Made by a program: the position numbers and the translations under genes. Positions 1,294 through 63,129 of a DNA stretch of 64,000 nt are shown in pieces (within the stretch, counting starts at the first letter, position 1; each line of letters opens with the position of its first letter). The notes under the pieces were generated by a model that ran no database searches, had not been told where the DNA came from, and saw nothing but the letters and a program-made list of their open reading frames with translations. This DNA is from Cenococcum geophilum 1.58. Taxonomy: Eukaryota; Ascomycota; Dothideomycetes; Gloniales; Gloniaceae. The stretch spans positions 620,001 to 684,000 of the forward strand of contig KV748208.1 in NCBI GenBank assembly GCA_001692895.1, read 5' to 3'.

Positions 1294-3126
1294 TCAATAC
1301 GTAAAGGCCTCCTCGATGAAGTCAACGCAGCCTACATCTACTCTCTTCCTTACGGCTACGCGCACACTATCAGCGAAGCCCCCGGCACCACAAACAGTGA
1401 CGGCAACGGCACCCTCACGTTCAGCAATCTCACGGTCGAGTATCGTCTGTATCGGGCAGCGACCAGGAAACATCATGACAGTCTCGCTCGGGCTACGGAT
1501 CTCGAAAGTGCTTCGTGGCTTTGTGATGAAGAGCATGATCCGAAGTACGTCTTTGCGGTGTGGTAAAGCAAGAATCTCGTCCATCCAAGGCTTGACCCAT
1601 TCTAGGCACTGTGTTTCGGTGATTGACCAGACCAGGACTACTTTGCGAGCGGCAACGGTGCCATTGGCGTAGCCTGTGACGAGTTCGCGAATGAAGGAGA
1701 CCTGGTGAGTTATCCCAACACCTGCGGCAAAGAGGACAATGGTGCCATAGGAGGCAAGAGAATCATGGCCGCCATAAGGGCCCTCGACGGCGCCCCAGGT
1801 GGTGAATGTGCTCTCTGGAGAAGCGCAGGCACGGTCGTAGAGCTTACGGGTCATGCCTGTCCTAGCACGCACAATGAGGGAGAGGGTGTTGCTTCTTGGT
1901 CGTAGACTGAGTGTATCCATGTCCTTCTCTGTCATAGGCAGCCCCGCATCCTGGGGTAAGGAATGCTTCAATGCTGTGCTCCACGCAACTGAGAAAGGGT
2001 GTGAAGCCCACAGAGAGATAGTTGGAAGGTATACGTGCACGTGACAGCCAGGACGAGGACGCCACGGTCGAACCATGTCGAAAGTAACTCGACAGGCTTC
2101 CCCAGTAAGGGCTTCCACTTTGACACGAGTGACTCGGCGGGTTGAAACGTTGTAGAAGAAAATACGGGCGACCCTGAAGAACCATTCCATTCCCCAGAGA
2201 GTGAATACAATCTTAATCCATGGGAGTTGCGGAAGGTGATGAGTATCAATGTGAACGTACACGCCAATCAGAGCGACCATGGCTGCGATCCGGTGGATGT
2301 TGAGAAAGGTCTCGTAGAAGGAATGCCGGATAGGTGCTGAAGCTTGGATGGCAATGAATATGAAAACAACTGTTGCCACCATGCCCCATTGATACGATGC
2401 TTCCATCTCCAATAGATGAGCCACTCCTTGCCACTTCCCATCGTGGTAGGTATTAACAAGCCATGCGAGAGTGTGGATAACTGACTCGATAATAACCAAC
2501 CTTGCAGCCCATCGGTGAAGGAGGTTGAAGGAATCATAGCTGACTTTTAAGAGGGGAATCAAGGGATTGTTTCGTAACGCAAATAAAACCGTTGGAATCA
2601 AGTTCAGAGCTGCTAAACTTCCGCTTCGGCCTCTCAATGCAGCCACAACAGACTCCCCCACGGGTATATTCCAAGGCAGAACCAGACAGTAGGCAATATT
2701 GCTCATAACATACACGACTAGCAACAAAGTGTGAAAGCGAGAAGGTAGTGTGCCGTTAGTGATCGCGGAGGACAGTTGAAAAGGGCGGTTGTGGCGGTGT
2801 TTCCATAGAGGGGCTAACAATAGATGTTTCTTCAGCGCAGGCCACCACTGCGTCTGGTTATTTGCCCAAAACGCTTGCCGGTCCGGATTTCCCACTGCGG
2901 CCATATGGCGGAGATGTGCAAGAAACATTTTGGTGAGCCGAAGGATAAGTGCGAGAATGCATATTGTGCCAAAGCAGATAACTAAAACGTTGACCCAAAG
3001 ATAGTTTCCGTGCTGGTCGACGCCTGCTAATCCATGTGAATATGCAAATGGGTCTTTATCTGTAATATCGGAAAGGATGCTGCGCGCCTGGACATTGATC
3101 CGTGAGGTAGTTCTAGAGGCTGTCAT
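1294..3126 (-). CDS. Ferric reductase (FRE/NOX-like transmembrane metalloreductase)
   Basis: Single-exon 610-aa membrane flavocytochrome that should move electrons from NADPH through FAD and two hemes to ferric iron (or copper) outside the cell or in the vacuole lumen. Visible: hydrophobic segments near residues 43-68, 131-151, 172-183, 207-224, 248-262 and 281-294; two heme-ligand pairs, His204/His218 and His278/His292, each spaced 14 residues as the family requires; the FAD motif HPFSVAW at 376-382; a GPYGG nucleotide-binding loop; and a C-terminal CGAGGFADSVR segment typical of the NADPH-binding lobe. No frame break. Length is normal for fungal ferric reductases. I see no signal peptide before the first membrane segment. 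Superoxide-generating NADPH oxidases share this fold, but the organisation fits ferric reductase better. The specific metal is inference. Confidence 0.92.
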   Translation of the reverse strand: MTASRTTSRINVQARSILSDITDKDPFAYSHGLAGVDQHGNYLWVNVLVICFGTICILALILRLTKMFLAHLRHMAAVGNPDRQAFWANNQTQWWPALKKHLLLAPLWKHRHNRPFQLSSAITNGTLPSRFHTLLLVVYVMSNIAYCLVLPWNIPVGESVVAALRGRSGSLAALNLIPTVLFALRNNPLIPLLKVSYDSFNLLHRWAARLVIIESVIHTLAWLVNTYHDGKWQGVAHLLEMEASYQWGMVATVVFIFIAIQASAPIRHSFYETFLNIHRIAAMVALIGVYVHIDTHHLPQLPWIKIVFTLWGMEWFFRVARIFFYNVSTRRVTRVKVEALTGEACRVTFDMVRPWRPRPGCHVHVYLPTISLWASHPFSVAWSTALKHSLPQDAGLPMTEKDMDTLSLRPRSNTLSLIVRARTGMTRKLYDRACASPESTFTTWGAVEGPYGGHDSLASYGTIVLFAAGVGITHQVSFIRELVTGYANGTVAARKVVLVWSITETQCLEWVKPWMDEILALPHRKDVLRIMLFITKPRSTFEIRSPSETVMMFPGRCPIQTILDREIAEREGAVAVTVCGAGGFADSVRVAVRKRVDVGCVDFIEEAFTY

Positions 3127-4416
3127 TTCGCGCTCCGCCCGCCGGGAGTGGAAGTGAAGAATCGATGATAGCTGTATGGCAGTTGATACCGCTATAATGA
3201 ATGACTGGTGTACTTATGATATTTGCGGTAACGAGTCCAGGTGTGAGTTCCTGGAATTGTAGGAAATTAATCGAGGGCCGAAAGATGGGATAAGCACTCC
3301 TGAGCGCTTGGTATTGAAAAGGCTCGAAAGGTTTGGAAAACGACGAGGGGGGGAGGTCAACAGGGATTTCTAGATATATAAATCTCGGTTCGTTGGTGTT
3401 GTGGCGTTGGAATGAATGAAGCGTCTCGCGAGACAAAGAGAGAACAATGAATTGTCACCGCGGTAGCATGACAATGTCTTTGTGTGAATCGGAGACTGCT
3501 TCTTTAGTGATCTGAGGAGCGTGATGGGGTATAATGCAATGTACAATGCTGGGGACAGTGTGGATGCTGGAGAGAGCCAAGTCCGATAGAAGCAGTCGAT
3601 GCTTTGTAGTGAAAGGTGCCGCAAAAAGATGCAGAATACAAGCCGGCCAAGCAGCTCTAGTGTTTATGCGATTCAAGTGAATGTTCAAACACTGGATCCA
3701 AGCCAGTGGTGAATAGCTCCAATCGGACGATCGCAGGAAGAAAGGGCCCGGGGTGAAAGAAAAAAAGTTCAGAAACGACAGTGAGGTTTCGAAACAAGAG
3801 AAGGACGGTGATACAAGCACCGGGGACGACCTCTACAGAGGGAGAGGCCACTGATGTAACTCTTTGAAAGCTGCGCTCACCGAGGGGTTCGTAATTAGTC
3901 GGCAGCCAATCAGCCGATAAGAACGCCGCAAATCTCAAGTTCAAAACTGCCCAGACCAGCCACAAATCCGGCCAACGACAGCCTATCGACGCCAGCTGGA
4001 CCCCATTGCCCTCAACCGGGAAGAGCGTGTCCACAACCGCTTGGGCGGTGTCACTCTTCGCTCATGCACAGATCATAGATCCTTGCTCCCAATCCAAGGG
4101 CCAAAGCCTTTGTTCGTTGGACGCCGGCTCTCGAATGTTGGCGCTTCCCCCAAAACCTCGGTTGTTTCATGTCCCGCTATGATAGACGGCGCGAGAGGGC
4201 ACCCGTTTGCAAACACACCGTTTCGTGAAACATCGACGATTCGGAAATGCCCGTGTGGATGCCGTCTCGCCTCTGCTTATTTGACGCCCCTATTGGGATT
4301 CCTGCGATTACGCTTTCAAGCTCACCTCGGGCCGACTTCCATCTCAACTTGGAAGTTGCCCCTGCACCCGACAGCTAAGACTTTTCGAAACATGAAACTT
4401 CGCGTCCCACTATCAT
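3127..4416. other. Intergenic region upstream of the ferric reductase
   Basis: Contains the presumed promoter of the leftward ferric reductase. Several 80-125-codon frames overlap on both strands, but none has a family motif or plausible splicing. A TGATAG (a GATA-factor type site) lies near 3163; a single such site is not evidence of iron regulation. No gene supported. Confidence 0.5.
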
Positions 4417-4680
4417 AGGTAACGTATCAGCCACCCGAACGAGCCAGCCACCCGAGCCACCCAAAATTACACCAAAATCAGCTATCTTTATACATTAATA
4501 ACTCTACCATCACTTAATATATAATTTTAAAATTTCAAACATATATACTTATACACTTATACTACTAATATAACAACCCTTTTAAGTGTAATTATTTATT
4601 AGGTGGTAGTAGAGTTATTAATATATAAAGATAGCTGATTTTGGTGCAATTTCGGGTGGCTCGCTTGGGTGGCGTTACCT
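4417..4680. mobile_element. MITE-like element with long terminal inverted repeats
   Basis: A 264-bp segment whose two ends are inverted copies of each other over roughly 80-90 bp. It begins AGGTAACG and ends CGTTACCT. The inner parts of both arms share ACCAAAATCAGCTATCTTTATA and then TTAATAACTCTA. The unpaired centre (about 4505-4605) is very AT-rich and non-coding. Small size, no coding capacity and long arms fit a miniature inverted-repeat element (or a fold-back element). I could not see an unambiguous target-site duplication. The family cannot be named from this window. Confidence 0.8.
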
Positions 4681-5298
4681 TCCAGGCACCACCATGAGCC
4701 AAGACCCGAACCTGCATCTGGCCGTTCCACCCTTGCGGCGATCCTTTTGCCTTTCCAGCTTTCTGCTTCGCGCGAAATCCGCTAGCACGATAAGTCGTTG
4801 TGGTGCCAATATATTATGGTGTCGAGGTGGATAGTATATCGAACGCGTTACTGTCTTGTCTCATACCTCAGCAAAATCTACCTCAACAATTCGATTTGTG
4901 ACGTTCCCTAAGAAATGGTGAATAGAGGTCTCAATTTCCACCAGTAACTCGATGGAGTCCATGACATCAGCGAATTTTCGACTCGTCAAACTGGTCCATG
5001 TTTTGTGGCACAATTCACATCCGGCGCAAGTTCCGACTGTTGTACAAATGACCGTGTTTGTGACGCCGAACAAGGAATGTAACATCAAGATGCAAGTATT
5101 GCGGCTTGATGATAGCCAGGCATATACCGCAAAGCTCAGTAGAGAAATTTAGAGCATGTTATCACGCACGAGTCGTATGAACCAAGTAGTTTCCAAATAT
5201 AGTCTCATTAATGCACTGCGTCGCCACCAAAATATACCTCTTATCCTTTGTTCCAATCTCATCTCACGGGAACAGATACCAGCTATGCGAAAATGCGA
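4681..5298. other. Intergenic region, no gene seen
   Basis: Lies between the MITE-like element and the 3' end of the CPS1/Dip2-like gene. Two overlapping small frames (about 66 and 75 codons, opposite strands, around 4861-5152) show no motif. The last part should be the 3' UTR of the leftward gene. Confidence 0.45.
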
Positions 5299-8200
5299 TC
5301 AATAAAATCGTCCCATGGACTCAGGCCCATCCCCTGCAAAGTTCATCTGCATAATTGCCTCTCGCGGCCACTCGTCTTCACTGTCCTCAGCCATTGATGT
5401 GCGGTTAGCAACTCTCAGGCCACCCCTTGACTGTTGCTGGGAGGGCAGTGGCCGTCGGTCACTCTCATGCAACGACTTCTCACCCCCTACGACCGTTGAC
5501 GGCAGATTCAGGAATGGTTTATTTCCGTAGCTGGGCCGAGGGGGTGCGGCATCCGGATCTTGACTGAGTGGTTGTGGAGGAGATCCTGTTCCGATTCCAG
5601 AGTTTCCATCCTGTTGGTTATGGCAATCTTGGCTGTCGTCATCAAATACACTCCTAACATTTATCGGTGAGTATGGTAGTGCGCCATCATTTCTCATCTG
5701 AATAGGGAATTCTCTGCGCGCTTCGGTGGGCGTATCATCACTGCCCCTTTCCCTCTCGTCCCGCATCGATTCCGTCACCAGTTCAGGAATAGAATTCGCG
5801 TAATCTTGTGCCGGCATTTCAGAGATACCAGTGGGGAGGGATATGTGCATCTGCATTGGCGTTTGCTGCATTCGGAGGGTTTGCATCTGGTTTGTCAGTC
5901 CTGGCATGCTACCTTCTCTCTTTAAGCTTCCCTTCACGCTTCCCGGTCTCGGCCCGCTATTCCTGAAAGTTCCAGTACTTGTTCTTCCCCCACTGACACC
6001 CATACCGGGCTCTGCTACCTCGGTGATTTGACTATCGGCGCCCTCGGGATCCCGGATGCTAAATTGGGCGATCGTACGCATTTTGCGAGTGACCCAACCC
6101 GCAAGAATCTTTCCTCGCTGCTTTTCGCCGAGCCGAGAACGATGGAAATCGCCTTTGCTAACAAAGGCCACTATATCAGTGACCAGGTGATGCTCGTTGA
6201 GAACAGCGTTAACTATTACGGGCACAATGGATGCTAAGAAGTTTTTGCGAAATATTTCGACAATGACGACAATGAGCCCGCCCGCTTGGAAGACAGCACT
6301 ACGACCAGATATCAGTTAAAATTAACTTTAGTCCAAAATCAAGACAAGAGAGCAAGGGCATCTAGGCACGATACGATATAATGAGGAGAAATACATACCA
6401 ACCACCTGGAACTATATTTCGATGGCATCGTTCAACAGAATTCTCGATATCCACAGAAAAGTGACAGAGGCCGTTAACCTCAAAAGTGTCTCCCACACTG
6501 CCCAAAACAAAGAGAATCTGCATCTCAACCTGTGCGCCTCCTGCGCCTATAGGCCTGCTGACATTGTGTAAGAAGCCGAGATCGCCGGTTCGTACATAGT
6601 GAACATTTGGATCGCCGTCCACTGTTCTCCCGTTGAATCTTTCAGCATCTAAAAGCTCCTTTGAACCATAGAAACTATGAGCGTTGGCTTCGGACTGAAC
6701 CCAGATTTCTCCATACTCGCCTACGAGGCAAAGATGGTTCGTCTCAGGGTTGACAATCGCAATTTGCGTGCTCACGGGTACCATGCCAGAATCTTGAACA
6801 AGGAGTGCGAAAGGTTCGGTATCAGGATCAACTGGTATAACTAAACCACGCCGTAACGCGTTCATATCAAGCCAGAGCTCGATTGGTTCGATGCACATGT
6901 ACGAGCGTGAAGCTACCATTGGGTTTAGAACATGTGAGTAAATAGTGTTAATGGCAGTTCGGTCAAGACCCGCTCCTGCAAAGTGCAAGCGAACCTTCTG
7001 GTCTGTAAAAGTAAGCTTGAGAGGGACTTTTTTTCAGTTTCGCTGAAATACTTACAGACATCAACTCGAGGTCTTCCGTCTGTCGCGATCATAAGGTTTT
7101 TGAGTTCGTGGAGCGTCGTTGCTTTACCGGCTCCATGGGCCATACCATGGTCCAGCATCTGACTAGTAGCATATGTGTCTTTGATCTTATATCTAGAGAG
7201 CGTCTGGAAAAGTATGTTGGGGTTTTGAGCAAAATCGACCGGGGATACAAGATACGTGGGTGCGGCTAGTGCTGATCAGTCTGATAGAACTCATCAACTA
7301 ATACAGATTACACACCTAGAAATATTCCCATCACGCAAGTATAAATAAAACCTAATCCTACAGTACTTCTAACACAACCGAGGACGGGCCTTGTGCTCGT
7401 CATCTGGCAAGTCTCCTTTTGAACCTTGCACAGCGCCATAATAGTGTCATGGCCCAATTGGACAGCAATCCGTCTTTGATCCGGTGTCCAGTAAGTCCAG
7501 ATTAGAACAGGATATCCAGGCTGCACCCAAGCAGGCCGAATGGTTAAGCCCAATTCCCGACAGCCATTCGACTGCTTCGGCGGTTTGGTGGTGTTGTAAG
7601 TATTGGGAATTGTAACTCTTAGAATCAAAGCCGACTGCTTTAGATGCTGAGAGACCGTCTTAACTTTAAGCAAGTGGTCTACGTCAGTATTCACAAGGAT
7701 CGCCTTGACTCTAAAATCTGCAATCATATGAAGCAAAGCTGGGGCGTCCTCGTTCAGGCGGTTCTGGTCAACGGGCGCCATCGGAATTGCTATGGCCCCT
7801 AAACAGAAGCAAGCGTGGACAGCGAAGACAAAATCTTCTGAATGTGTGTACATTAGGAGGAGATGGTCACCAGGTTGAATCTTAACCTTATTTTTGAGAT
7901 ACATGGCCACCGCAGCAACTTTGAGATCGAACTTTTTCCAGTTGACGCCCTTTCCTTCTCTGCCTCGACCGTCAATGGTGCAATAAGAGAGCTCTTCTGC
8001 CTGCCGTGAAACTCGCCATTGCATAAGATCGTGAATATTGGAGAACTGATTTAAGGGTGTAGAGGTGCGATCATCGATGACAACCTCCCGATAATCCACA
8101 CCAGAGTACTGTTTGTCCTGCATCATCAAAAGATTTTGCCGCGCTAGTGAGGCCATGGGAGACCAGATGCCACCGGCAGGATCATCCCCAAGTGGAAGAT

Positions 8201-11200
8201 TTTGCACTGCCCTCTCTACGCCAAATTTGACGTGGACACATGGTAACGACCCGTTATCAAATTCTTTTCGACAAAGCATGTTGCCAATTTCTCTCCTGCC
8301 GTTCTTAAATACCCTTGGTAGGGTATTCGGAGCTGTGATCATGACACAATAGACACGTAAATGATGCTCCTGGTACAGAACCTCCATGCACCGTTCGGAG
8401 AGGGAATCGAGGAACGGTATATCCAGCTGCCGCGGTGGACCTCCAGGGTTCGTCGGAGCTGTTGAAGCCGCCTGGGTTTCTATTAGAATGATTGGTAAAT
8501 ACTCTCCATTCACCTGCGAGTCAAAAGCGGAACTGCTGAAGCATTAGCTATGCAAAGACTGAGAAGCATCTCACTACCTACCAATCGTATATTTTCGGGA
8601 CAGTTTTCATGATACTGACCACCAGGTGTTGGACAAAGAAGTAACGGTGTTCCGCTTCTTGTACGCCGTGTTCAACCCATTCTACTCTTTGTCGGATACG
8701 ATCTTCATAAAGACCAAGCACAAATATCTTGCCTTCAATAATGCAGCCAAGAAGACCAGTTCGAAGGAATTCTAGTTTAATAAGAACCGGCGTGGGATTA
8801 CTTTCTACAAACCTATAAGGTTTTGCATGGAATATGCTTTCAGTGAGCTTGGGCAATGCCCAAAAGCCTCCAGACAAAGAAGGCGAATCAACCCATATCT
8901 CACCAATCGTGTATGGCGAACACAAGAGATTGGTCTCTGGGTCGACTAGAGCAAGCGTTGCATCTGGGATAGGATATCCAAACGCTCCTACCCTAAGCGT
9001 CCCGGCTTCATTCGCGCGTTTTCTTGCCTCATCGCCCATGGCGAGGACCACAACCTCATTCGTCTTAAGAGCTTCTTTGTCCAGAAGGGCCTCGGTTAAC
9101 TCCGTACGGCTCTTTTTCTGATCGGTCTTCTTCGTGGTTCCACCTCCGATCAAGCTGGCATAGCCGTTTGAAGCTCCATTATCGAAAGCTTCGGCCATTT
9201 TATCATCAGTCTCTTCTTCAAGATCATCCATGCTCAATGGGCAACCCATTCGTTCTTCACCGCTGAGCCAATCTCTTACAGAAACAATCATGCCACCGTG
9301 TTCCGGTAGGCACAACATTGGCGCGACAAGTTGTCTGGCTCGCGGGTTTCGCATTGGACGCAGCCACCGATCTGCTAGAATCTCGTGGAACTCACAGTCG
9401 ACTGTTAAGGTATCAATTAAGCATATCTTGACAGACGCGAAGTTTGGTTCCACATTTTTCTTGAAATTTCTTGTGGCCATGGGATCTTGCTGATAATTGT
9501 ACGCTGCGCGCTTGAGTCCAGGATAATCCGCAACCATTATTGTGGTTTTATACTTGGAGATCAGGTGTGCATATAAACCTGGTGTGTCTACTGTCCGAGA
9601 CTCTAGCCAGACCATTGTGTGACCCCCATAGACACCAAAGAGCACTCCTAGTATCATGCCTGCACCCTCACGAGGGTCTAGGTAACTGAGGATAACTTCG
9701 CCTGCTCCACTTTTTGGGGTCCCGGCTACAAAATTCCCATTTCTATCTCGCAGTCCGGGGTGGAAAGTGTCGACGCTTTCAGCACCGGTTGGAATGGTGG
9801 AAACAATGGCACTCAAACAAGCCATTTGGTGCATAATTGTGCGGTGGCTCAAAACGACCCCTCTGTGATCACCCGTAGGCGCTCGAGAGAATTCAATATA
9901 AGCCAAATCAGGTACTTGTAGCGGCGGTGCTTCATCGTGCTTCTTCGGATGGTAGCTTCCAAACTCATTGGTCTTCCACCACTCAACGCCTGTGGGCCAT
10001 TTGAGCCTATTTTGGCTAATGTCGCGGTGGAAAGCTTTTAGGTTGTTGTCGGTCGTCAAAGCTAGATGCGCTTGGGTAGTTGTCAGTAAGAAACTAAGCT
10101 TCTGGTAATCGTCCACGCTGTTCATTGGCACAGCTACAACGCCAGCAATAAAACAACCCAACAATGCAACAGCAAACTCGATAATCTCTGTATCACGGTA
10201 GACTAACGCTACTCGATCACCGCGGTAAAGATTGCTCTTGTCTCTAATGACCTTGGCAACTTTTTCAGCTCGACTTGCTACCTTTTCCCAGGTGATTGAA
10301 GACGTTTCTTTACCTTTCGGATCCAGTATCCAGTATGCAGGCTGCCTAGGATTTGTTCGACCACGGTGGCGGAGCACAGCACCGATGTTGTCAAATTTTG
10401 ACATAGGCACGTGACCATTATGAGGGTCATAAACGGCAAATGGTAAATCTCGCGGCTCCAGCGGGAGCTGGCATTCGACAATAGCAGCCGAAGGAAGCTC
10501 ATTCTGTGAGAGCATCGGAGGAGGAATGGCCGCGGTCGGTGAAAAGGCGTCACCGGAAGAATACCGATTTGGACCACCATAACTATCTCGATTTTCCTGC
10601 ATCTGTTGACCTGCAAAATCCGAAAAATAACCTTGCTGAGAATCTAGCATCGTGCTTAATCTACTTGCATCCCCGGATGAGCCAATTCCACCAGGGGCAT
10701 GGTCATTGTAACCAGATTGAGCATCTGGCTTAAATGCATAGTCGGAATTAACCATTGTGCCATCTCTAGAATATGGGTATGTCTCGGGGGTTTCAGGCCT
10801 TGGCGGGAAAGACTCCCGTTCATATGAAGGTTGTCTCTGCATAGAATTGTTCCGCACACTTAGCTGCTTTTCTTGGAACCGTCCAATCTGGCTAGGAGGG
10901 TATGCCATGTACTCGCTTGAAACCCTCCCACTGTTCTGACCCGACATCTGGTATGGAGATTGGGATAGAGAGGTTTCGGTAGGTTGTTGATAATTGGATG
11001 GGTTTGCGGTAAGCGCGGCGAAAGATGCAGCGCGGGACCCATCATTCAGAGAATGATCGGTATCAGCGCTTCGTGTACGAAGATGTGTTTGAACCTGTCC
11101 TTCCTGGGCTGGGCCGAGATACTGCGACAGAAGGAGTGTGCGCCGCTTCTCATACCTTTGAAAGAGGTCCTGTGTGTCAGCACGAGCTCCGCAACTTTCA

Positions 11201-11433
11201 AGCATCCCATGTCCGGAACCAAGAGTGCGCGCGAATTGACTCAGCGGGGCGGGAGGAACGAAACATACCCTTTCCTTGTGATATCTCCCTCCTGTATCAC
11301 GCGCTCATGATTAGCACTGTGGGTGAACTGTGGGGTCCTGTGGAGGGGCAGTGGAAGGGAAAGAATAAACCACCTCCAGTTCATGTTCGAGCTCCTCCAG
11401 TTTTGCTCGCAATTCGGGGTTGGTCTCCGCCAT
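5299..11433 (-). CDS. CPS1/Dip2-like protein: DMAP1-binding domain plus two adenylate-forming domains
   Basis: Seven exons, all phases closing: 11433-11374, 11291-11269, 11155-8582, 8532-7316, 7265-7056, 7002-6399, 6298-5299 (5688 nt, 1895 aa). The start has a strong GGCCGCCATGG context. Residues 1 to about 40 read as a DMAP1-binding domain (ELEHELEEGDITRKGYEKRR across two introns). A low-complexity stretch (about 40-260) is followed by two acyl-CoA-synthetase-like domains (about 260-840 and 960-1560) and a Q/P/S-rich tail. The family includes fungal CPS1 (a reported virulence-associated factor in Cochliobolus), yeast Cmr2-type proteins, S. pombe mug62 and animal DIP2, linked to lipid homeostasis. 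The usual Ser/Thr/Gly-rich ATP loop is degenerate in both domains, so catalysis on ATP is uncertain. Exon 2 is only 23 nt. No frame damage over 5.7 kb of coding sequence. Confidence 0.93.
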
Positions 11434-13792: not shown

Positions 13793-15779
<1,987 letters not shown>

Positions 15780-20006: not shown

Positions 20007-21156
20007 CTACTTCATCCACTCACCCACCAAATTTTCGAGCATTGCTATCATCTCAGCTTTCCTATTTTCATCGCACCAACTCTCTTCTATGCTGGATCTA
20101 CAGATACGCTCCCAATCATCAATATCCAAATCGAAGGCCTCATGGATGGCGCAATAATTGTCTAGTACATACCCTCCAAAATATGCAGGATCATCGCTAT
20201 TTATACTGAATTTGATGCCGGCATCCAAGAATTTGCGAATAGGGATTTCTTTTAAGGATCCAACGCACCCCAGTACGACGTTACTCAATGGGCATATCGT
20301 AAGCATAATGCCGCTTGCTGCAACCTGCGCCATGAGCTCCTCATCATCCGCAAGACGAATGCCATGATCGATGCGCTCGATGCCTAAAGTTTCAAGCGCA
20401 CTTGCGATAAAGCTGGCAGGGCCTTCTTCCCCGGCGTGAGCCGTACGCCGCAGACCTTGCTTCGTTGCTTTCTCATACATATCTTTGAACAAGTGTGGCG
20501 GAAATCCGAGCTCACTAGAATCTAGCCCGATTCCCTTGATGGCGCCATTGATATAGCTGGCCTGGATTTCCTCTTGTTCAAATATCGCTAGACATTCTGG
20601 TACTGGGAGATGCCGCAGGAAACAGCATATTAATTCGGTTGTAATACCAAGTTCACGCTGAGCACGACCCCGCGCAGCATTGAACCCATCCAAAACTGTC
20701 GAGTACGATACGCCGCGGGACATGNGGGCTTGTGGATCAAAGAACACCTCGGCATGTTGGACACCATCAGAAGATGCATGCTGGAAATAGTCCCATGCTA
20801 CAGCTTCGAAATCATCTTCATGGACGAGGACGGACATGCCAATGAAGTAATAGTGAAGGAAATCGTCGAGGGACGAAAAGCTATAAAGGTCAGCCAAATA
20901 AGCTCTTTAAAGATATTCCAGCAGCTATAGGGGAGGTCAAGGCAATCCATGCTATGCTGTTATGCCGATCTTACCGTTTGTACCGGGCTAATAACGCCTC
21001 GTGAGAGTTGAAAGCCTCATCGTCTAGAGGCAAGCTAATTGCATTCCGGCTAGCAAGTTGGAAGAGAAGAGATGGCGCTAACGCACCCTCGAGATGGATA
21101 TGTTGCTCGCATTTCGGAAGTTTTTCCAAGAAACCGTGAAGCTCGGACTGGCACAT
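20007..21156 (-). CDS. Adenine deaminase (Aah1-like) of the adenosine/AMP deaminase family
   Basis: Zn-dependent hydrolytic deaminase, probably adenine to hypoxanthine plus ammonia in purine salvage. Two exons: 21156-20975 and 20880-20007 (351 aa); the intron has a GGCTGAC branch motif and the phases close. Metal-binding HIHLEG at residues 19-24, conserved DFLHYYF and VFFDPQ, catalytic HAGEEG, a later His-containing RIDHGIRL, and SINSDDPAYFGGY with the catalytic/metal Asp pair. The Aah1-type length and GMSVL/PAYFGGY context favour adenine rather than adenosine, but this is inference. One N at 20725 falls inside a codon (CNC, most simply His) and does not break the frame; the following residue is Met where family members usually have Thr. 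Confidence 0.9.
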
Positions 21157-25386: not shown

Positions 25387-28300
25387 ATGGATGGTACTGT
25401 TTCAAAACCATATCAAAGCCACTCTCATCATCATTCAGTTGGGATGCACTCTTCCTCTTCAGTCTCCTCAAATGCATCGCCGCAAAGTATGATACCACCC
25501 GCCAATATGTTTGGAACAGGAGCCCCAGGGCGCCTTCCTAGCCTATCCGTCCCGTCTCATCAACATCAACCCGGGACAGGGTCTCCAGGGGGCTACAATG
25601 CGACCACTTATAGTCAATCTTATGCCGCTTCATCGGCATCTCCTAGCACAGCCTCTGGCAGTTTACAAGACCTACCTTCAAACGAACCGACAATACCTAC
25701 TTCTAGCATCTCTCCAACACGCATTTCGGCTGATAGTCTGAGCGCACAAAAAAGAGCTTATCGCCAAAGGAGAAAGGATCCAAGCTGCGACGCATGTAGG
25801 GAGCGAAAAGTCAAGGTGAGCAATACATCTTACTCTAACTTTGTGCAGTCGATGTGCTGTTCACAAATGGTGAATATTTTCCTTTTGCAATGCGAGCCTG
25901 CTTGAGTCAACAAGTGCACGCTGAGTTCCTTCAATGCCTCATGTATAACACCAAGGGGATCGGATTGAAGTCACTCGCTGTTTGCCGAGAGCAGGGCTTG
26001 AATAATAGGACTATCGCGATAAATGTCAAAACATTAATTCCTCTGTCGTTACTGAGCGCTCGTTAACTCTCTCGGCTGGCCCTGGTATCGAGACTAGTAA
26101 TGAGAAAGGGGACAACTATTCTGTTCCGGCGCTAATTCGCTTTGCAGTGTGATGCTACAGAAACCTCACCCTGCTCCGAGTGTTCTAGTCGTAGCCATAA
26201 ATGTCAATTTACAAAGGAGACAAATCGTCGCATGGAGTGTTCTAGTCGTAGCCATAAATGTCAATTTACAAAGGAGACAAATCGTCGCATGGAGTGTTCT
26301 AGTCGTAGCCATAAATGTCAATTTACAAAGGAGACAAATCGTCGCATGGAGTGTTCTAGTCGTAGCCATAAATGTCAATTTACAAAGGAGACAAATCGTC
26401 GCATGTCTTCCATCAAGTAAGTTTCGCCATCTACATGAACGTGCATGTGAGTGCTAGAGAAATCCTGCTTACTCTAGAAAAGACAGGTACAGGATCTTCA
26501 GAGTCAGTTAGCAGAAGCCAAACATCAGATCAACCATCTGCGATCACTGCTTCACGAGAGAGGTGGGGACCTCGACCGCAGGGCAATGGAGATGCCATTG
26601 CTAAAGCTTCCCGACATCATACCGAATCTAGAACGAAGGCAAAGTCCACCAACAATGAATAACTTCGACCACGTTCGGAAGAATATACGAATATACGGTC
26701 GAGGGATATTCAAATCCCCGCCTCCGTATCGACAACTCGCTTCTCAGCCCTCTTACTCGTCCACCCCACCCCCCTTGCCTCCGAGACAAGTTACAGATCG
26801 ACTCATTTCCCAGTTCTACGATTCAACCCACAGATCATATCCCTTGATCCACTGGCCCACATTTCAACACGAAGTTGAAAAGGTATACTTGGCAGGGAGC
26901 TTTCACGCCATGCCTCAAGTATGGGTGGCGTCATTNTTCGCTGTTCTGGCTTGCGGCACTCTTCAAACTTTGGATTCTTTGCCACATTCTCCAAAGGCCG
27001 AAGTTGAAGGCATGTCATATCTTGACACATCTGCTCGGGCGTTGAACAATTGGACAGATGAAATGGTGATCGATCATGCCAGAGCGTCATTGCTAATAAG
27101 CATATTTGCCACAGAAGTAAACTTGAAGTCTGCTGGGTTAGTGTGGCTTGGTTCTGCCGTCAGAATTGCGCAAGATATAGGGCTACACTGTGAGACCGGG
27201 CCGTGGCCCGTTGTGGAAGGAGAGATACGGCGGCGGGTGTGGTGGGCTATATATGCCTGGGATAGGTAAGCAGTAAACTCAGTACCCTAATGTGTGGTCT
27301 CTAATGCAGTTTAGGCTCTTGTCCTTAGAACTCGGGCGTCCGCTATCGATAGACGATGAGGACTGCGATGTCGGATTTCCTTCTCCCGTTGACGACCGAT
27401 ACATTCAACCTCAGGGCATTATAAGGACGCCTGCTAACTATGCCCCACATACTGGTCTTGTAGCCGCTATCCCTGTTGTGCGCTTCGTTTCACACTTGAA
27501 AAGGACTCTAAAGACAGTCAGCATCGCAACCCACACGCTACAGACATACGACGACTACTTCCATGGAATCATGTCATCTTTCCCAGAGCCCTGCCACGCA
27601 ACCACTGATACGTATTTGGATCCTGTTTTGTTGTCATCTGTATTAACCTTACAAGTCGCTCGTTTTCACTTGTACCGACACAATCTCTCTGTAAGCTGTC
27701 GGCCTGCAGAACGGGCAGACGCATTACGGCGCTGTGCATCCGTGGCACAGGACACAGCAAAATATATCTCCCGCAGCCTACAGATTCCACCAGTAAAGAT
27801 TGAGCCATCTGACTTCTCTGAGTCGCCTAGTCAGGGCTGGCGAGCTCGAGTGCTTTGCTCCGCATCAAATATGTTGTGCACCCATTTGTGGCGATGCATG
27901 CTAATATTATGCCTTCGCGCCGACTATCATGCCGCCCTCACTTGTCTGCGCCTCAGTTCTGCTATAGGAGACCTACGCAAAGTAAACGTGGCATGTGGGA
28001 GGAATCTATCCTTTTTCCTTGACCGCCTGATAGATCGTATCTGCAGTGGCAACGGTAGTCATCACCAGCTCGAGCAGGACGAAGAAATACTAGCATATGT
28101 CAGCGGCGACATGCAGGGGTGTTTAGAGAACTCGTGGGTATGGACAGGCAGTGAGATCGGTCTGAAGTTGAACACACCAGTCCTCGCAGTGGGTGATCCA
28201 CATTCGAGGGAGAACGGGGAGACATTCGAGGGAGTCCATCTACCACTCCGCCCAAGCCCGTTGCTAACTGAAAAGGAGTCAAGAGAATGGGGTGGGTGGG

Positions 28301-28524
28301 AACGTATTGAACGCATGATAGGCCAGCTTATGGAGGAACAACGCACTCGACTTGCCCAGCCACCTCCGTACTATCATAGGCCGCCACACAACCCCGGAAA
28401 AAGAGTACATTTGGCGCTGGATGCGGCAGTGCCGGCTTCCGTAGCTGCGTCGATGGCACCGACTTCAACGAGCACCATGAGTTCCGTAGGCTCATCTCGC
28501 ATCAGCATTGCAAATATAATCTAG
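25387..28524 (+). CDS. Zn(II)2Cys6 transcription factor with Fungal_trans domain and expanded zinc-cluster repeat
   Basis: Four exons: 25387-25815, 26148-26416, 26483-27265, 27315-28524 (896 aa). The N-terminal region is Ser/His/Pro-rich. The zinc cluster begins at residue 134: Cys134, 137, 144, 152, 155, 162 in canonical C-x2-C-x6-C-x7-C-x2-C-x6-C spacing, split by intron 1 after Lys143. Residues 154-172 (57 bp, EC..KC..M) are then repeated three more times without change before SSIK and a coiled-coil-like linker (QVQDLQSQLAEAKHQINHL). The Fungal_trans domain spans about residues 300-560 (FYDSTHRSYPLIHWPTF; VWWAIYAWDR). Intron 1 (332 nt) is far longer than the others here. One N at 26936 is harmless. 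It should be a nuclear DNA-binding regulator; the target pathway is unknown. The repeat could be natural or an assembly artefact. Confidence 0.9.
26178..26405 (+). repeat. Four perfect 57-bp tandem copies within the zinc-cluster exon
   Basis: The unit begins GAGTGTTCTAGTCG and ends CGTCGCATG, 57 bp each, four copies with no difference that I can see. As 57 is a multiple of 3 the frame is kept, adding three 19-residue modules, each with two Cys spaced C-x6-C (positions 174/181, 193/200, 212/219). Confidence 0.95.
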
Positions 28525-32535: not shown

Positions 32536-34387
32536 CTACAAGTTTGCGCCCCGCCGCTTTCCTCCGCCTGCCTGCTCAGATTTCAAGGCAGCATCAACGA
32601 TTTCCATAGCATGGCATAGCCGACGCTCTTGTAGTCTCGGGGCGACAACTTGGATGGAGAGGGGGGTGTTGAGGTACGTGGAGCGGTCCACCTTTGTCCC
32701 TGTCCACGATCGTAAGCAAAAAACCCTGCGGTGCATGGTGCACGACCCCGGAATTGAGGTCAAGAGTAGTGTGGCTAGGCAAATTACAGACTCACAAGGC
32801 TTGCGATTCATCTTATCCCCGACGACAGTGGTGGCGTATCGAGCACTTCGCCCTGCATATCCTTCGCGCCAAACATTCGTACGGGGATCACGCCCGCAGG
32901 GTAGTCGAGCGGCACAAAGGAGCTAGTATAGCTGACGCTGTTCCAGCGATCGATAGGTGGGACGGGGTGCGGGGCAACTGGGCAGATAAAAGCGTCAATG
33001 CTCCGTCTCCGCCCTGACCTGTCCTTCCGTTTTTCGCGCGTGCAGCGAGCGGACTTGATCGAGCGTCTTTGGAGCCATGCGTTTCAACCGCGTGGAGAGC
33101 CAGGGTGAGAGTGGTTCGGAGGTCTGCTCGAGCAGGTCAAACATGTTGTTTCCACCGTCGATGCTGAAGAGGGCATTGGCGAGAGATTGGCATTGCGAAA
33201 AAAGCGGTGTTATGTCCATCTCGACGACTTCAATCTTAGAAGCGCGGAGGGTAGAGACAACTTCGTCCAGGAGGTGTTGAATAGGTGGGAGCGGATCGAT
33301 AACCCCATCGCGGCGAACTATACCAATAGTCGGGCAGGATTTTGATATAGTGGAGAGCGACATCCAGGGGCTGGGCAATACGTCTGGGTCTATTTCCCAT
33401 GGACTTTGGCTAGACACCGCGCTGAAGAAGAGCTCTAGGTCTCGCATGCAGTGCGCGAGTGGTCCTGCACTGGCAGGTAAGGCCATCTTGGAAGAACCTG
33501 GCAGTACTCCACTCTCTTGTCTTGCATATGGTATCCTCTGCCAACTAGGTTTGATACCGTAGAGTCCGTTGCACATTGCGGGAATTCTGATGCTGCCTCC
33601 CACATCAGTCCCGACGCTTAGCACAGAACCCCTCATAGCAATGAGAGCGCCTTCACCACCGCTACTCCCACCAACCACCGTGTTATACGGGTTTAACACC
33701 CTTCCGAATACGTTATTATGAGAATCAGGCGCCATTAGTGTTGCGGAACGTTTGTCTTGCAATAAAGCACGGCGCCAGCGTTAAGGAGGACGTCGACTAG
33801 AGCGGAGGCGGTTATGGAGGGCCGGAATGCAAGAGCAGCGATACCGATAGAGGCGTCATAGCCAGGGATCTTGAAGGTGTCTTTGAGTGATACGGGAACG
33901 CCATGGAGAGGGCCTATAGGTGGATTACCAGCCTCGAGGTGTGCGTCGAGTTAATTAGCGCGGACGAGGGCTTCGTCGAAGAGTATTTCGGCGAGACAAT
34001 TCGTCTGGATGCGTCAGCGGGCAGTACATAAATGTAAAAGTGGGTGAGATATGGCATACTAGTTGATGTGCAATGGCTGCTCTCTTCCACGGAAGACCTC
34101 AGTATCTTCCTAGAAAGTCGATTTGCGGGAGAGGTAGTATACTTTACAAAATGCCTTTACGACGTTAAAGCTCTTCAGGCGACGATTTGAGATCTCGTGA
34201 GCCAATGCGGTTGCGTCGTATTTCTCTGTAATCTCGAGTTCTTGGTCATTGAGCAAACCGCATTTGCGGGGAACTCAACGTAATTAGTCGAATCTGGCGG
34301 AGGTGAGCTCAAGAGCCAGCCTTTTGGAATTCTGGAGGCCTGCTCGTCCTTATTTTGCCAGGAGACCAGCTGCCACTTCTCCGGCAT
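32536..34387 (-). pseudogene. Amidase (acetamidase-type, amidase signature family), degenerate
   Basis: Amidase-signature enzymes hydrolyse carboxamides to acid plus ammonia. Blocks in order: ATG at 34387 (MPEKWQLVSW... EQASRIPKGWLLSSPPPDSTNYVEFP), GPLHGVPVSLKDTFKIPGYD with the catalytic Lys, NPYNTVVGGSSGGEGALIA and GTDVGGSIRIPA with the Ser-cisSer-Lys region, GLYGIKPS, then IDAFICPVAPHPVPPIDRWN and the terminal TYLNTPLSIQVVAPRLQERR. Disruptions: a one-base loss after NYVEFP (about 34266), in-frame TAA at 33951-33953 where ANELDAH is expected, one base lost at about 33740 (VPQ/LMAPDSHN), and further frame changes near 33020 and in the 32640-32830 stretch. Without these, the protein would be a typical fungal amidase of about 550 aa. 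Clearly non-functional if the sequence is right. Confidence 0.88.
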
Positions 34388-39847: not shown

Positions 39848-40868
39848 GCTCGGGCCCTTCGCAAGAACCTTCGCGGATGAGCTTAGGGGTAAGCCGTGCA
39901 CGGAGCCGTGCACGAAGCTCTGCAAAAGGTCTGCACGAAGCTCTACTCGAAGCCCTATATGGAGCTCTAAAGCTCTACTAACACGCAGCACTAATATACT
40001 AGGAAGGTTCTATAATCGGCCGTACGAACGCCCATACGATTAGTCGCCATACAATCGTCCCTACGAACGGCTCTATAAATGTCGCACGATTGCCCGTACG
40101 AACGCCTATATAATTAATTGATTGATTAATTAATTACCTATACAAACGCCCGTACGAACGCCTATACGATTAATTAATCAAACGTCTATGTAATTGCCCA
40201 TACAATCGTCTATACGAACGTCTCTACAAACGTCTCTACAAATGTCTGCACGAACGCCTGCACGAACGCCTATATAAAGCTCTGCTCAAAGCTCTATATA
40301 AAGCCCTTTATAAGGCCTTCAAAAACAAGCCTAAATACAAGGTCTATATAGAGAAGCTCTATCAAAGCTCTACTCAAAGCTCTAACCAAGCTCTGCTTGA
40401 GGCTCTGCTCGAAGCTCTGCTCGAAGCTCTACTCGAAGCTCTATCAAAACTCTGCTCGAAGCTCTATCGAAGCTCTGCTCAAAGCTCTGCACGAGGCTCT
40501 ACTCAAAGCCCTATCAAAGCTCCACTTGAAGCTCTGCTCGAAGCTCTACTAACACGCAGCACTGATATACTAGGAAGACTCTATAATCGTCTATACGAAC
40601 GGCTCTACAATTAATTAATTTATTAATTAATTGCCTACACGAACGCCTATACGAACGTCCATATAAACGCCCGTACGAACGTCTGCACGTCTAGACATCT
40701 ATACGTCTACACGCCTGCACGCCACACGTGGTTCTGCATAAGGCTCTGCGCGAACCTCTGCACAAAGCTCTACTAAAGCTCTACACGAGGCTTTGCCTAA
40801 AGCTTACCCCCCGCTGCGAAGCAGCCCCCGCAGCGCAGCACGACGGAGGGATAGGATTTGCTTCGCAA
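39848..40868 (+). repeat. Composite minisatellite element, copy 1
   Basis: About 1 kb built from two interleaved short motifs: a 12-mer of type GCTCTGCTCGAA (for example 40390-40560) and a decamer-like ACGAACGCCT/TATACGA series, with TTAATTAA islands. The phrase CACGCAGCACTRATATACTAGGAAG occurs twice (about 39980 and 40551). It closes with a GC-rich hairpin-like segment GCGAAGCAGCCCCCGCAG (about 40815-40832). The part from about 40214 to 40862 is colinear, in reverse, with 52131-53060. Confidence 0.88.
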
Positions 40869-52130: not shown

Positions 52131-53090
52131 CGTGCTGCGGGGGCTGCTTCGCAGTAGGGGGGAAGCTTTTGGGCAAAGGCTCGTGCAGAGCTTCGAGCAG
52201 AGCTTCGTGCAGAGCTTCGAGCAGAGCTTCGTGCAAAGCTTCGTGCAGAGCTTCGTGCAGAGCTTTGAGCAGAGCTTCGTGCAAAGCTTCGTGCAGAGCT
52301 TCGTGCAGAGCTTCGAGCAGAGCTTCGTGCAAAGCTTCGTGCAGAGCTTCGTGCAGAGCTTCGAGCAGAGCTTCGTGCAGAGCTTCGTGCAGAGCTTCGT
52401 GCAGAGCTTCGAGCAGAGCTTCGTGCAGAGCTTCGTGCAGAGCCTTGTGCAGAGCCATGTGCAGGCGTGCAGACGTGTAGATTGCAGACGTGCAGACGTG
52501 CAGACATTCGTACGGGCGTTCGTGTGGGTGACTAATTNATTGATTAATTGTATGGACGTTTATANAGCCGTTCGTACGGGCGTTTGGTTANTTNATCGTA
52601 TAGACGTTTATAGAGCCGTTNGTGTAGACGATTATAGAGTCTTCCTAGTATATCAGTGCTGCGTATTAGGAGAGATTTGGAGCTCCGTATTAAGCTTCGA
52701 GTAGAGCTTCGAGCAGAGCCTCGCGTAGAGCTTTTAAGCAGAGCTTTTGAGCAGAGCTCCGTGCAGAGCCTTGAGTAGAGCTTCGAGCAGAGCTTTGATA
52801 GAGCTTCAAGTGGAGCTTTGATAGAGCTTTGAGTAGAGCCTCGTGCAGAGCTTCAAGCAGAGCTTCAAGCAGAGCTGAGCTTTGAGCAGAGAGCTTCTCT
52901 ATATAGACCTTGTATTTAGGCTTGTTTTTGAAGGCCTTGTGAACGGCTTTGTATAGAGCTTTGAGCAGAGCTTTGTATAGGCGTTCGTGCAGGCGTTCGT
53001 GCAGGCGTTCGTGCAGGCGTTCGTGCAGGCGTTCGTACAGGCGTTCGTACAGACGTTTGTAGAGATATTAGGGGCATAATCGGGCTCCAT
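52131..53090 (-). repeat. Composite minisatellite element, copy 2 (inverted relative to copy 1)
   Basis: Begins TCGTGCTGCGGGGGCTGC and follows copy 1 in reverse: GC-rich end, array of 12-mers, GTGCAGACGTGC segment, TTAATTAA-like island, the CCTAGTATATCAGTGCTGCG phrase, more 12-mers, and the ACCTTGTATTTAGGCTTG segment. Five N bases (52538, 52565, 52591, 52594, 52621) fall in it and one (53106) just outside. Confidence 0.88.
52180..52460 (+). repeat. 12-bp minisatellite array, about 23 units
   Basis: Near-perfect head-to-tail units AGAGCTTCGTGC / AGAGCTTCGAGC / AAAGCTTCGTGC. The units themselves show a higher-order alternation (roughly every 4 units). The matching place in copy 1 has only a few degenerate units. 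All frames are open because 12 is a multiple of 3, which gives long spurious ORFs here. Confidence 0.95.
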
Positions 53091-59921: not shown

Positions 59922-60979
59922 CTAGTCATCCTCATGGACCACTGCCATATCTAAGATTTCGGCCCTTCCACGCCCTTTGGTCTGGCCACCAATGAACTCC
60001 GTCAGCGCTTTGAAGGCTCCTGGTTCAACAAACCCTACAACTTCCCACTCGTCGCCCACCACATCCTGTTTTTCGACTTCCTCGACATAGCTGATAATAC
60101 GGTCCTTTACTGTCCCATGAGCTTTCTCTTCGCCGTCCGCAGCTTCCCCAGCGCTCTTTGGAGCGGATTTGACAGCTTGCTTAAGGATCGATGTAGGGCA
60201 AGTTATGCGTAACTTCATCCGCGCTCTTGCGACTGGTATCGGTTGGTGTGCAATCAGCGCTTTCATCGCATCCAATGCTTGTGACTTTGCCGATCTCGTG
60301 GTGACCACACCAGTCCATTTAGGCAGCTCTTTCCCTTTGCCTTTCGGCTCTACAGCCTCGTCGCTATTGGCTGCAGGCGCGGCGTCGCTTGAACCCTGTG
60401 TCATCTTGATATCGCCTTGCTGATTGGCTCCCTGCGAGCTAAGCTGATCCAGCGCTTTGTCTATCATGCCTGTTGTATAAACTCGTTTCGTGTTTGGGTC
60501 CACCAACTTGCTTGCAACAATATCGATGACCTCGTTGTGAACTCTCTCCAGCTGTGCATGCCTTTCTTTTTCTCCGACTTGCAACTCACCCTTGTTCAAT
60601 ATCTCGAGAATGATGTCGTTCAAGGAAGTCTTCGCACCGAATGATTTTGTGAGGTCTTGGGTTGGTGCTGCCTGGCCTTTGCTGACGGACAGGAAAACAT
60701 TCGGGATTTGGAGGACGTTGTCGAGATCTTTCTCTACACCACTACGCCATTCAAGCACTTTATTCTTGTAGCATGCTATTTCGTAGCGCTTTTTGCCTGG
60801 CTCCTACATTAGATTCTATTGATTTTAAAAAATAACAGGACCACAAGTACCTTTCTTCATGCGCACCAAGGAAACGTTCGTAAGTTTGATCTGGCCGGAC
60901 GGCTACGAACATGTTAGGTGGGCTCGGGCTGAGTATCGTAGTGGCTTCGTGTACGTACCTGGTTGATCCCAACAGGCAT
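59922..60979 (-). CDS. sdo1: SBDS family ribosome maturation protein (Sdo1)
   Basis: With the GTPase Efl1, releases eIF6/Tif6 from pre-60S ribosomes. Three exons: 60979-60959 (MPVGINQ), 60902-60851, 60796-59922 (315 aa). The joins give [47 protein letters not shown], the classic SBDS N-terminal domain, then GELQVGEKERHAQLE (the central helical domain) and the C-terminal ferredoxin-like part, PIPVARARMKLRI... WEVVGFVEPGAFKAL. An acidic/Gln-Ala-rich insert lies at about 155-185 and a Lys/Ala/Glu insert further on, making it longer than human SBDS (250 aa); such inserts are plausible in fungi. No frame damage. Confidence 0.95.
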
Positions 60980-61402: not shown

Positions 61403-63129
61403 ATGAAGGTTGTAGCATCAACACTGCTCTTCGGAGCAGCTTCTGCGGCCATTATGCCGCAGCAGCAAGTCCTGAAGCTTCCCAAGGGAGCTTCTGATAT
61501 GTGGATGAAACCACTTCACAATCTGGAAGAGTCTTTGAAGTCTCTCTCCGCGGAAGCTCGCCAAGTGTGGGACGAAGTCGCAATGATGTTCCCAGAGTCA
61601 TTTGACAAGGCGAATTTCTTCTCTACTCCGAAGCCACATACCCGTAAAGCCGATCACGAATGGGATCACATCATCAAAGGTGCTGATGTCCAAGGTGTTT
61701 GGGTCGAGAATGCAAAGGGCGAGAAGGAGAGAGAGCTTGACGGGAAGCTCGAGAACTATCGCCTGCGAGCAAAGAAGGTTGACCCGAGCTCACTCGGAGT
61801 TGACAAGGTAAAACAATACAGTGGTTATCTTGATGACGAAGAGAATGACAAGCACTTGTTTTACTGTAAGTTTCCTATCAGGGTCCCCCCTCCCTTGATT
61901 CTGACAGTACTTCTTAGGGTTCTTTGAATCCCGAAACGATCCCGAGAACGATCCTGTCGTCCTCTGGCTTAATGGCGGTCCCGGCTGCTCCTCCTTGACT
62001 GGCCTCTTTATGGAGCTTGGACCATCTTCTGTCAACAAGAAGCTTGAGTTAGAGTACAATCCGTATTCTTGGAACAGTAACGCATCGGTCATTTTCCTTG
62101 ACCAGCCGGTCAACGTGGGTTTCTCCTACAGTGGCAGCTCCGTTAGCAACACAGTAGCTGCCAGCAAGGATGTTTACGCACTCCTTACCCTATTCTTCAA
62201 GCAGTTCCCAGAGTATGCGAAGCAGGACTTCCATATCTCAGGAGAATCATACGCTGGCCACTATATTCCCGTCTTTGCCTCGGAAATCCTGTCCCACAAG
62301 AAGACAAACATCAACCTCAAGTCTGTTCTCATCGGCAATGGCCTCACTGATGGCCTGACTCAATATCAATACTATAAACCCATGGCATGTGGTGAGGGAG
62401 GCTGGCCCGCCGTGCTTGATTCTGGTGAATGCCAGGCTATGGAGAACGCCTACCCTCGCTGTGCTAGCCTCATCGAGAACTGTTACAACACCGAAAGCGT
62501 CTGGTCCTGTGTACCTGCTTCAATCTACTGCAATAACGCCATGATTGGCCCCTATCAACGCACAGGCCAGAACGTGTATGACGTCCGTGGAAAATGCGAG
62601 GATTCAAGTAACTTGTGCTACTCTGAACTTGGTTGGATCAGTGATTACCTCAACCAAGACAGCGTGCAGGAGGCCCTGGGAGTTGAAGTTTCGTCATATG
62701 ACAGCTGCAACTTCGACATTAACCGCAACTTCCTCTTCCAAGGAGACTGGATGCAGCCTTTCCACCGATTAGTTCCGGGCATCCTCGAGAAGATTCCCGT
62801 TCTCATCTATGCTGTAAGTTCTCCATATTACCTTAATCTTCCCTTCCTCTCTGACCGCGTTTTAGGGTGATGCCGACTATATTTGCAACTGGCTCGGAAA
62901 CCAGGCTTGGGCCGAGGCCCTCGAATGGCCTGGCCAGAAGGCTTACAACAAGGTCAAGATGAGCGACCTCCTACTCAGTGATGACCACTCTAAGATCGGA
63001 GAGGTCAAGTCGAGCGGCAATTTCACCTTTTTGAGGCTTCACGCCGCTGGCCACATGGTTCCCCATGACCAACCTGTTGCTAGCTTGGATATGCTTAACA
63101 GGTGGTTATCCGGCGAGTGGTTCGAGTAG
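61403..63129 (+). CDS. cpyA: Vacuolar carboxypeptidase Y (serine carboxypeptidase, S10)
   Basis: Removes C-terminal residues from peptides in the vacuole. Three exons: 61403-61865, 61918-62813, 62866-63129 (540 aa). Signal peptide at residues 1 to about 17 ([17 protein letters not shown]), then a propeptide to about residue 130, then the mature enzyme from about [12 protein letters not shown]. Catalytic triad: Ser in [10 protein letters not shown] (about residue 265), Asp in [12 protein letters not shown], His in [24 protein letters not shown] (substrate carboxylate binding) and many Cys (disulfides) are as expected. NFTF near the end is a possible N-glycosylation site. Length and domain order match fungal CpyA. 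Confidence 0.97.

What the first reader, a model, noticed from the sequence alone, without database searches (positions are those of the whole stretch)
26178..26405. Four-fold in-frame duplication of half a Zn(II)2Cys6 cluster
Seen: the last two cysteines of a canonical zinc cluster and the following basic linker (19 residues) are repeated four times without change, adding three extra C-x6-C modules directly after the DNA-contact domain. Known: Zn(II)2Cys6 domains need exactly six Cys; extra half-clusters in tandem are not a standard arrangement. Inference: this could change metal binding, linker length and thus half-site spacing, or be a recent slippage allele. Identical copies mean it is very young or an assembly error.
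Basis: partly seen in the sequence, partly recalled or inferred. Interest (0 to 1): 0.8.

Follow-up and report, generated by a model that had tools for sequence, protein, structure and literature searches.

The report
Stretched linker in fungal zinc-cluster regulator
A gene-control protein of a fungus carries, right after its zinc-containing DNA-reading domain, a 19-residue stretch repeated four times without change, most likely a recent in-frame repeat expansion that leaves the zinc domain intact but makes the tether behind it much longer.

Summary
In detail: 26178-26405 is four identical 57-bp units, in frame, in exon 2 of a modelled four-exon gene (25387-28524, 896 aa) with Zn_clus and Fungal_trans domains. 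No second copy was found in its 177-Mb genome. Each unit repeats Cys5 and Cys6 plus the basic linker; Cys4 lies outside. The first unit completes a normal six-Cys cluster; the other three add six cysteines and 57 residues before a heptad-like helix seen by eye (72 residues instead of 15). Of 83 fetched Zn_clus loci, 62 were readable in one frame; one has a single downstream Cys-x6-Cys, none more. Another zinc-cluster gene has an in-frame 132-bp x3 array, with 7 of its 10 Ns where two other copies differ; the 57-bp array has no N. Best reading: a young coding minisatellite in the linker, probably real (about 0.85), copy number four less certain. Likely effect: DNA contact kept, longer and more basic linker, changed or relaxed half-site spacing. 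Metal binding by the extra cysteines is speculative. No reads, transcript, orthologue or structure could be checked.

The parts
25387..28524 (+). Zn(II)2Cys6 / Fungal_trans transcription factor gene, modelled with 4 exons, 896 aa (839 aa if only one repeat unit is counted)
   Evidence: Spliced model without internal stops; PF00172 30.0 bits over cut-off 21, PF04082 60.3 bits over cut-off 23. Exon borders inferred from GT-AG sites and reading frame; no transcript seen.
25387..25815 (+). exon 1: N-terminus and the first cluster half up to the residue before Cys3 (CDACRERKVK)
25816..26147 (+). intron 1 (332 bp, GTGAGC...CAG); splits the zinc cluster just before Cys3
26148..26416 (+). exon 2 (269 bp; 98 bp without the three extra units): Cys3-Cys6, the repeat array and the end of the linker
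26178..26234 (+). repeat unit 1 (Cys5 and Cys6 of the intact canonical cluster plus basic linker)
26235..26291 (+). repeat unit 2 (extra Cys-x6-Cys module)
26292..26348 (+). repeat unit 3 (extra Cys-x6-Cys module)
26349..26405 (+). repeat unit 4 (extra Cys-x6-Cys module; its linker end is the one next to the heptad-like helix)
26417..26482 (+). intron 2 (66 bp)
26483..27265 (+). exon 3: heptad-like stretch VQDLQSQLAEAKHQINHLRSLL (judged by eye) and the start of the Fungal_trans domain; one N at 26936
27266..27314 (+). intron 3 (49 bp)
27315..28524 (+). exon 4: rest of the Fungal_trans domain and C-terminus

Best explanation
A coding minisatellite. A 57-bp piece of exon 2 was duplicated in tandem in frame and then grew to four copies by replication slippage or unequal exchange. 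Shown by the sequence: four identical in-frame copies; a complete cluster motif with the first copy; 72 residues instead of 15 from that copy's Cys6 to the heptad-like stretch. Inferred: the protein still folds one normal Zn2Cys6 cluster from Cys1-Cys6 and contacts its DNA triplet as before, while the 57 extra residues (net charge +3 per unit) form a long, flexible, basic tether with six spare cysteines. A dimer would then tolerate wider or more variable half-site spacing, or bind half-sites more independently. Near-neutrality is as likely as adaptation.
For: Exact array and frame; canonical Cys spacing 2-6-7-2-6 kept in copy 1 and Zn_clus matched at residues 133-170; weak phmmer matches to the solved DNA-binding domains of GAL4, CYP1/HAP1, LEU3 and PUT3 (best E 0.0026, run with limit 1). 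Splicing away the extra units looks unlikely: no GT in exon 2 fits 2 or more of the 3 scored donor positions, no CTRAY branch motif there, no AGGT in the doubled unit. Another zinc-cluster gene of the genome carries an in-frame 132-bp x3 array. That the linker generally determines half-site spacing, and that S. pombe Mca1 has a linker of residues 52-116 and CGG triplets 16 bp apart, is from passages of PMC6080790.
Against: No reads, transcript, orthologue or second strain could be examined; exon borders are modelled; no structure prediction was possible; the coiled coil is judged by eye. The splice test is weak: one of the three modelled introns (intron 2) also lacks a CTRAY motif, and two true donors score only 2 of 3. 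DNA folding of the unit is no better than shuffles (z 0.26, 0.60, -0.08), and no microhomology marks the borders, so the first duplication has no explained trigger.
Confidence: 0.65

Rival explanations
1. Assembly artefact: the genome holds one unit, or another number of units, and the assembler miscounted a short repeat.
For: The assembly holds isolated Ns (10 in the window), five of them at 52538-52621, between two TRF arrays, and L017's array holds 10 Ns: repeats were hard for it. The 57-bp array without Ns is what identical copies would give, but also what one copy would give. If the organism is Cenococcum geophilum (a guess from genome size), the assembly was AllPathsLG on Illumina, fragment reads 2x150, with PacBio gap filling (PMC5023957, passages and section 15 part 1); 228 bp is longer than one such read.
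Against: A repeat path in an assembly needs at least two adjacent copies in the reads, so a one-unit genome should not give one (general knowledge, not tested). In L017, 7 of 10 Ns fall on the 14 of 132 sites where copies 2 and 3 differ (hypergeometric P 3e-6), though 3 Ns do not and 7 of the 14 sites carry no N. The only perfect long-period array in about 207 kb is this one, so such arrays are not a habit of this assembly. The copy number may still be off by one or more.
Confidence: 0.15
2. An adaptive or regulated arrangement: the spare Cys-x6-Cys pairs bind metal or form disulfides, making a linker that responds to zinc or redox state.
For: Six extra cysteines in regular spacing 6-11-6-11-6; no such pair behind 61 of 62 readable clusters of this genome (41 of 62 readable over the full 76 residues).
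Against: No Cys-x2-Cys in the extra units; identical copies show no sign of divergence towards a new function; no biochemical data.
Confidence: 0.1
3. A broken allele: the stretched linker spoils the dimer geometry and the gene is on its way to loss.
For: The expansion sits in the segment tied to dimer geometry in this family (passages).
Against: The whole 896-aa frame is open in the model and the repeat keeps the frame; a long linker is found in a working protein, Mca1.
Confidence: 0.1

Closest known systems
Zn(II)2Cys6 (Gal4-type) zinc cluster transcription factors with Fungal_trans domain
   Same: Complete six-Cys motif of spacing 2-6-7-2-6, linker, heptad-like stretch (by eye), Fungal_trans domain
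   Different: Three extra in-frame copies of the Cys5-Cys6-linker segment; 72 residues from Cys6 to the heptad-like stretch
S. pombe Mca1 (long-linker zinc cluster protein)
   Same: Unusually large linker (residues 52-116) after the cluster; the authors suggest it may explain binding to CGG triplets 16 bp apart (PMC6080790, passages)
   Different: The passages seen do not describe its linker as a tandem repeat of cluster residues
S. cerevisiae Sut1/Sut2
   Same: More than 60 extra residues in a zinc cluster region (PMC5412356, passages)
   Different: There they lie between Cys3 and Cys4, inside the cluster; here behind Cys6 of the intact cluster
Coding minisatellites (variable intragenic tandem repeats)
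   Same: In-frame head-to-tail units; slippage or recombination are the usual models (PMC3899988, passages)
   Different: That review calls minisatellites prevalent in genes of extracellular or cell-surface products; here one sits in the DNA-binding region of a regulator. Variation between strains not tested.

Membership tests
Zn(II)2Cys6 cluster domain | Cys-x2-Cys-x6-Cys-x5-12-Cys-x2-Cys-x6-8-Cys | tested here: met
   Spacing 2-6-7-2-6 for the first six Cys; PF00172 30.0 bits over cut-off 21; formula from PMC5412356
Zn(II)2Cys6 cluster domain | six Cys bind two zinc ions | not testable with these tools
   needs metal analysis; twelve Cys are present from Cys1 to the end of the array
Gal4-type dimeric regulator | linker followed by a coiled-coil dimerisation helix | tested here: inconclusive
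Fungal_trans (PF04082) regulators | match over the curated cut-off | tested here: met
   60.3 bits over cut-off 23, residues 341-521
Coding minisatellite | head-to-tail units, whole number of codons, inside an exon | tested here: met
   4 x 57 bp = 4 x 19 codons inside modelled exon 2
Coding minisatellite / VNTR | copy number varies between strains | not tested
   no other strain or species of this fungus was reachable here

The most novel reading that the evidence does not exclude
A sliding zinc cluster. Cys1-Cys4 could in principle pair with the Cys5-Cys6 of any of the four units. Using unit 1 leaves a 72-residue linker, units 2, 3 and 4 leave 53, 34 and 15, with the skipped units looped out inside the cluster; the spacer of over 60 residues inside the Sut1/Sut2 cluster hints that such loops can exist. 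One protein would then have four registers and could span several half-site spacings, and changes of repeat number would tune its set of targets.
Probability: 0.06. Interest if true: 0.8.

Novelty: new variant of a known kind. Interest (0 to 1): 0.4.

Why it matters
If real and expressed, it is a natural test of an old question about zinc-cluster proteins: how far the linker between cluster and dimerisation helix sets half-site spacing. A repeat whose copy number can change by slippage would alter that length in 19-residue steps, so strains with different unit numbers, if they exist, would form a ready-made allelic series. It would also show that part of a zinc-binding motif can be multiplied without breaking it.

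Tried and rejected
Chance: rejected. Paralogues as an outgroup: the exon 3 and exon 2 queries hit only this locus (only best candidates are scored there), so no ancestral state could be inferred. Relatives in viral contigs: the six peptide patterns of an exon 3 query found nothing (not a fungal collection). The prokaryote genome collection was not scanned. Extra units spliced out: judged unlikely, but the test is weak, as told in the Against line. Hairpin-driven slippage: the DNA folds no better than shuffles. Bacterial promoter/terminator scan (0 promoter-like, 1 terminator-like site): not meaningful for a fungus, ignored. Literature on a duplicated or extra half cluster: searches list 15 of 161, 15 of 162 and 10 of 15 papers; no title or abstract start listed there names one. 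Searches (5 of 5; 12 of 6,241; 10 of 195) served for linker and repeat background. Passages of PMC8396895 use 'internal duplication' of gene clusters, not of domains; my terms were not found in the held text of PMC2447501. 'Not in print' is not claimed. A peptide text search gave 0 papers. The species guess (Cenococcum geophilum, 178 Mb in PMC5023957) rests on genome size alone; the rRNA search meant to test it did not complete.

An earlier count gave gene end 28527 and 897/840 aa, and the script gives 897 and 840; the lengths count the stop sign. The right figures are end 28524 and 896 aa, 839 aa with one unit.

Full report
What is there. The window is G000:C33:620001-684000 of a 177.19-Mb genome in 162 contigs. 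TRF reports 26178-26405 as 4.0 copies of 57 bp with 100% matches; the four units are one string. They lie in exon 2 of a gene that I model as four exons, 25387-25815, 26148-26416, 26483-27265 and 27315-28524, with introns of 332, 66 and 49 bp. The model has an open frame of 896 residues with PF00172 (30.0 bits, residues 133-170) and PF04082 (60.3 bits, residues 341-521), both over their cut-offs. Intron borders are inferred from splice signals and frame; no transcript was seen.

Anatomy. Counted from the model, the cluster has Cys134, 137, 144, 152, 155 and 162. The unit ECSSRSHKCQFTKETNRRM begins two residues after Cys4, so it holds Cys5, Cys6 and the basic linker. The first copy completes a normal cluster motif of spacing 2-6-7-2-6; the next three add three Cys-x6-Cys pairs at intervals of 11. 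From Cys6 of the first copy to the start of the heptad-like stretch (judged by eye) there are 72 residues; from the last copy 15, which is what a one-unit protein would have. Each unit carries five K/R and two E (net +3). Solved relatives by sequence are distant: GAL4 at E 0.0026, CYP1 at 0.009, LEU3 at 0.037, PUT3 at 0.076.

Is it unusual here? The own-genome search with PF00172 gave 83 matches over the cut-off, from 150 scored of 152 candidates; this is a lower bound. I fetched all 83 places: 30 with 1.5 kb on each side and 53 with about 0.4 kb on each side. In 62 of 83 a full six-Cys pattern could be read in one frame; the other 21 were dropped, for reasons I did not examine (an intron in the cluster or a spacing outside my pattern are likely). 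Of the 62, 41 could be read for the full 76 residues downstream and 21 only to an earlier stop; one (L009) has a single Cys-x6-Cys there, none has more. Where several matches occurred in a locus the script kept the one with most K/R between Cys2 and Cys3, and the frames may run into introns. This window's gene is not among the 83; an intron splits its cluster.

Is it real? In about 207 kb of this genome (window, 30 loci, five 10-kb stretches) it is the only TRF array of period 15 or more with 100% matches, so perfect long-unit arrays are not a habit of this assembly. Another zinc-cluster gene, L017, has a 132-bp x3 array in frame behind its cluster, whose copy 1 has 10 Ns; 7 of these 10 fall on the 14 sites of 132 where copies 2 and 3 differ (P 3e-6), 3 do not, and 7 of the 14 sites carry no N. 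I infer that this assembly often writes N where reads of unlike copies mix. Single Ns also occur away from arrays, for instance at window 14179, 20725, 26936 and 46613, so they have other causes too. The 57-bp array has no N, as expected of identical copies, but also of a single one. I judge at least two copies very likely and four likely; reads would settle it. Of the 83 loci, three hold a TRF array of period 24 or more (L017, L026, L029); only L017's was checked for frame, and the 53 short stretches would miss arrays further off.

Age. Zero differences in 171 compared sites bounds divergence below about 1.7%. That fits a recent origin but is a loose bound, and exchange between copies resets it.

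How it works. From passages read: zinc-cluster proteins typically bind CGG pairs as homodimers, with a downstream helix forming a coiled coil (PMC5559640; PMC5412356); the linker is involved in dimerisation and protein-DNA geometry (PMC4634231) and generally determines half-site spacing, with Mca1 as a case of a linker of residues 52-116 and triplets 16 bp apart (PMC6080790). By analogy, the four-unit protein keeps its DNA contact and gains reach. The extra cysteines lack a Cys-x2-Cys and need not bind metal. That is inference; no structure model could be made. Slippage and recombination are the general models for such repeats (PMC3899988, passages); I found no hairpin and no microhomology at the borders that would explain the first duplication.

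Surroundings. Of 15 other open frames of 220 aa or more in the window (17 listed, two of them exons of this gene), I scanned ten; eight match metabolic or housekeeping families and two match nothing. No transposon family was among these; I did not search for mobile elements otherwise.

Verdict. A correct and unusual observation, best read as a coding minisatellite in a zinc-cluster linker; a new variant of a known kind. The bold reading, a cluster that can choose among four Cys5-Cys6 pairs, is not excluded and is testable.

Noticed in passing
L017:322-717 (G000:C16:2136396-2139503): A second zinc-cluster gene carries an in-frame 132-bp (44-aa) x3 array, 90% alike, with 10 Ns in one copy, 7 of them at sites where the other two copies differ.
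   Followed up: partly
window 40201-40550 and 52181-53057: Arrays of mostly 12-bp units, which by eye read as reverse complements of each other at the two places (GAAGCTC and GAGCTTC cores); five of the window's ten single Ns lie between the second set's arrays, at 52538-52621.
   Followed up: no
window 26936: A single N in exon 3 of the same gene leaves one residue undetermined.
   Followed up: no
window 1294-11304, 14578-15567, 20007-20906, 32995-33780, 59922-60803, 61905-62870: Open frames here match ferric reductase, DIP2-like and Mug62-like AMP-binding proteins, isopropylmalate synthase, adenosine deaminase, amidase, SBDS and serine carboxypeptidase families.
   Followed up: no
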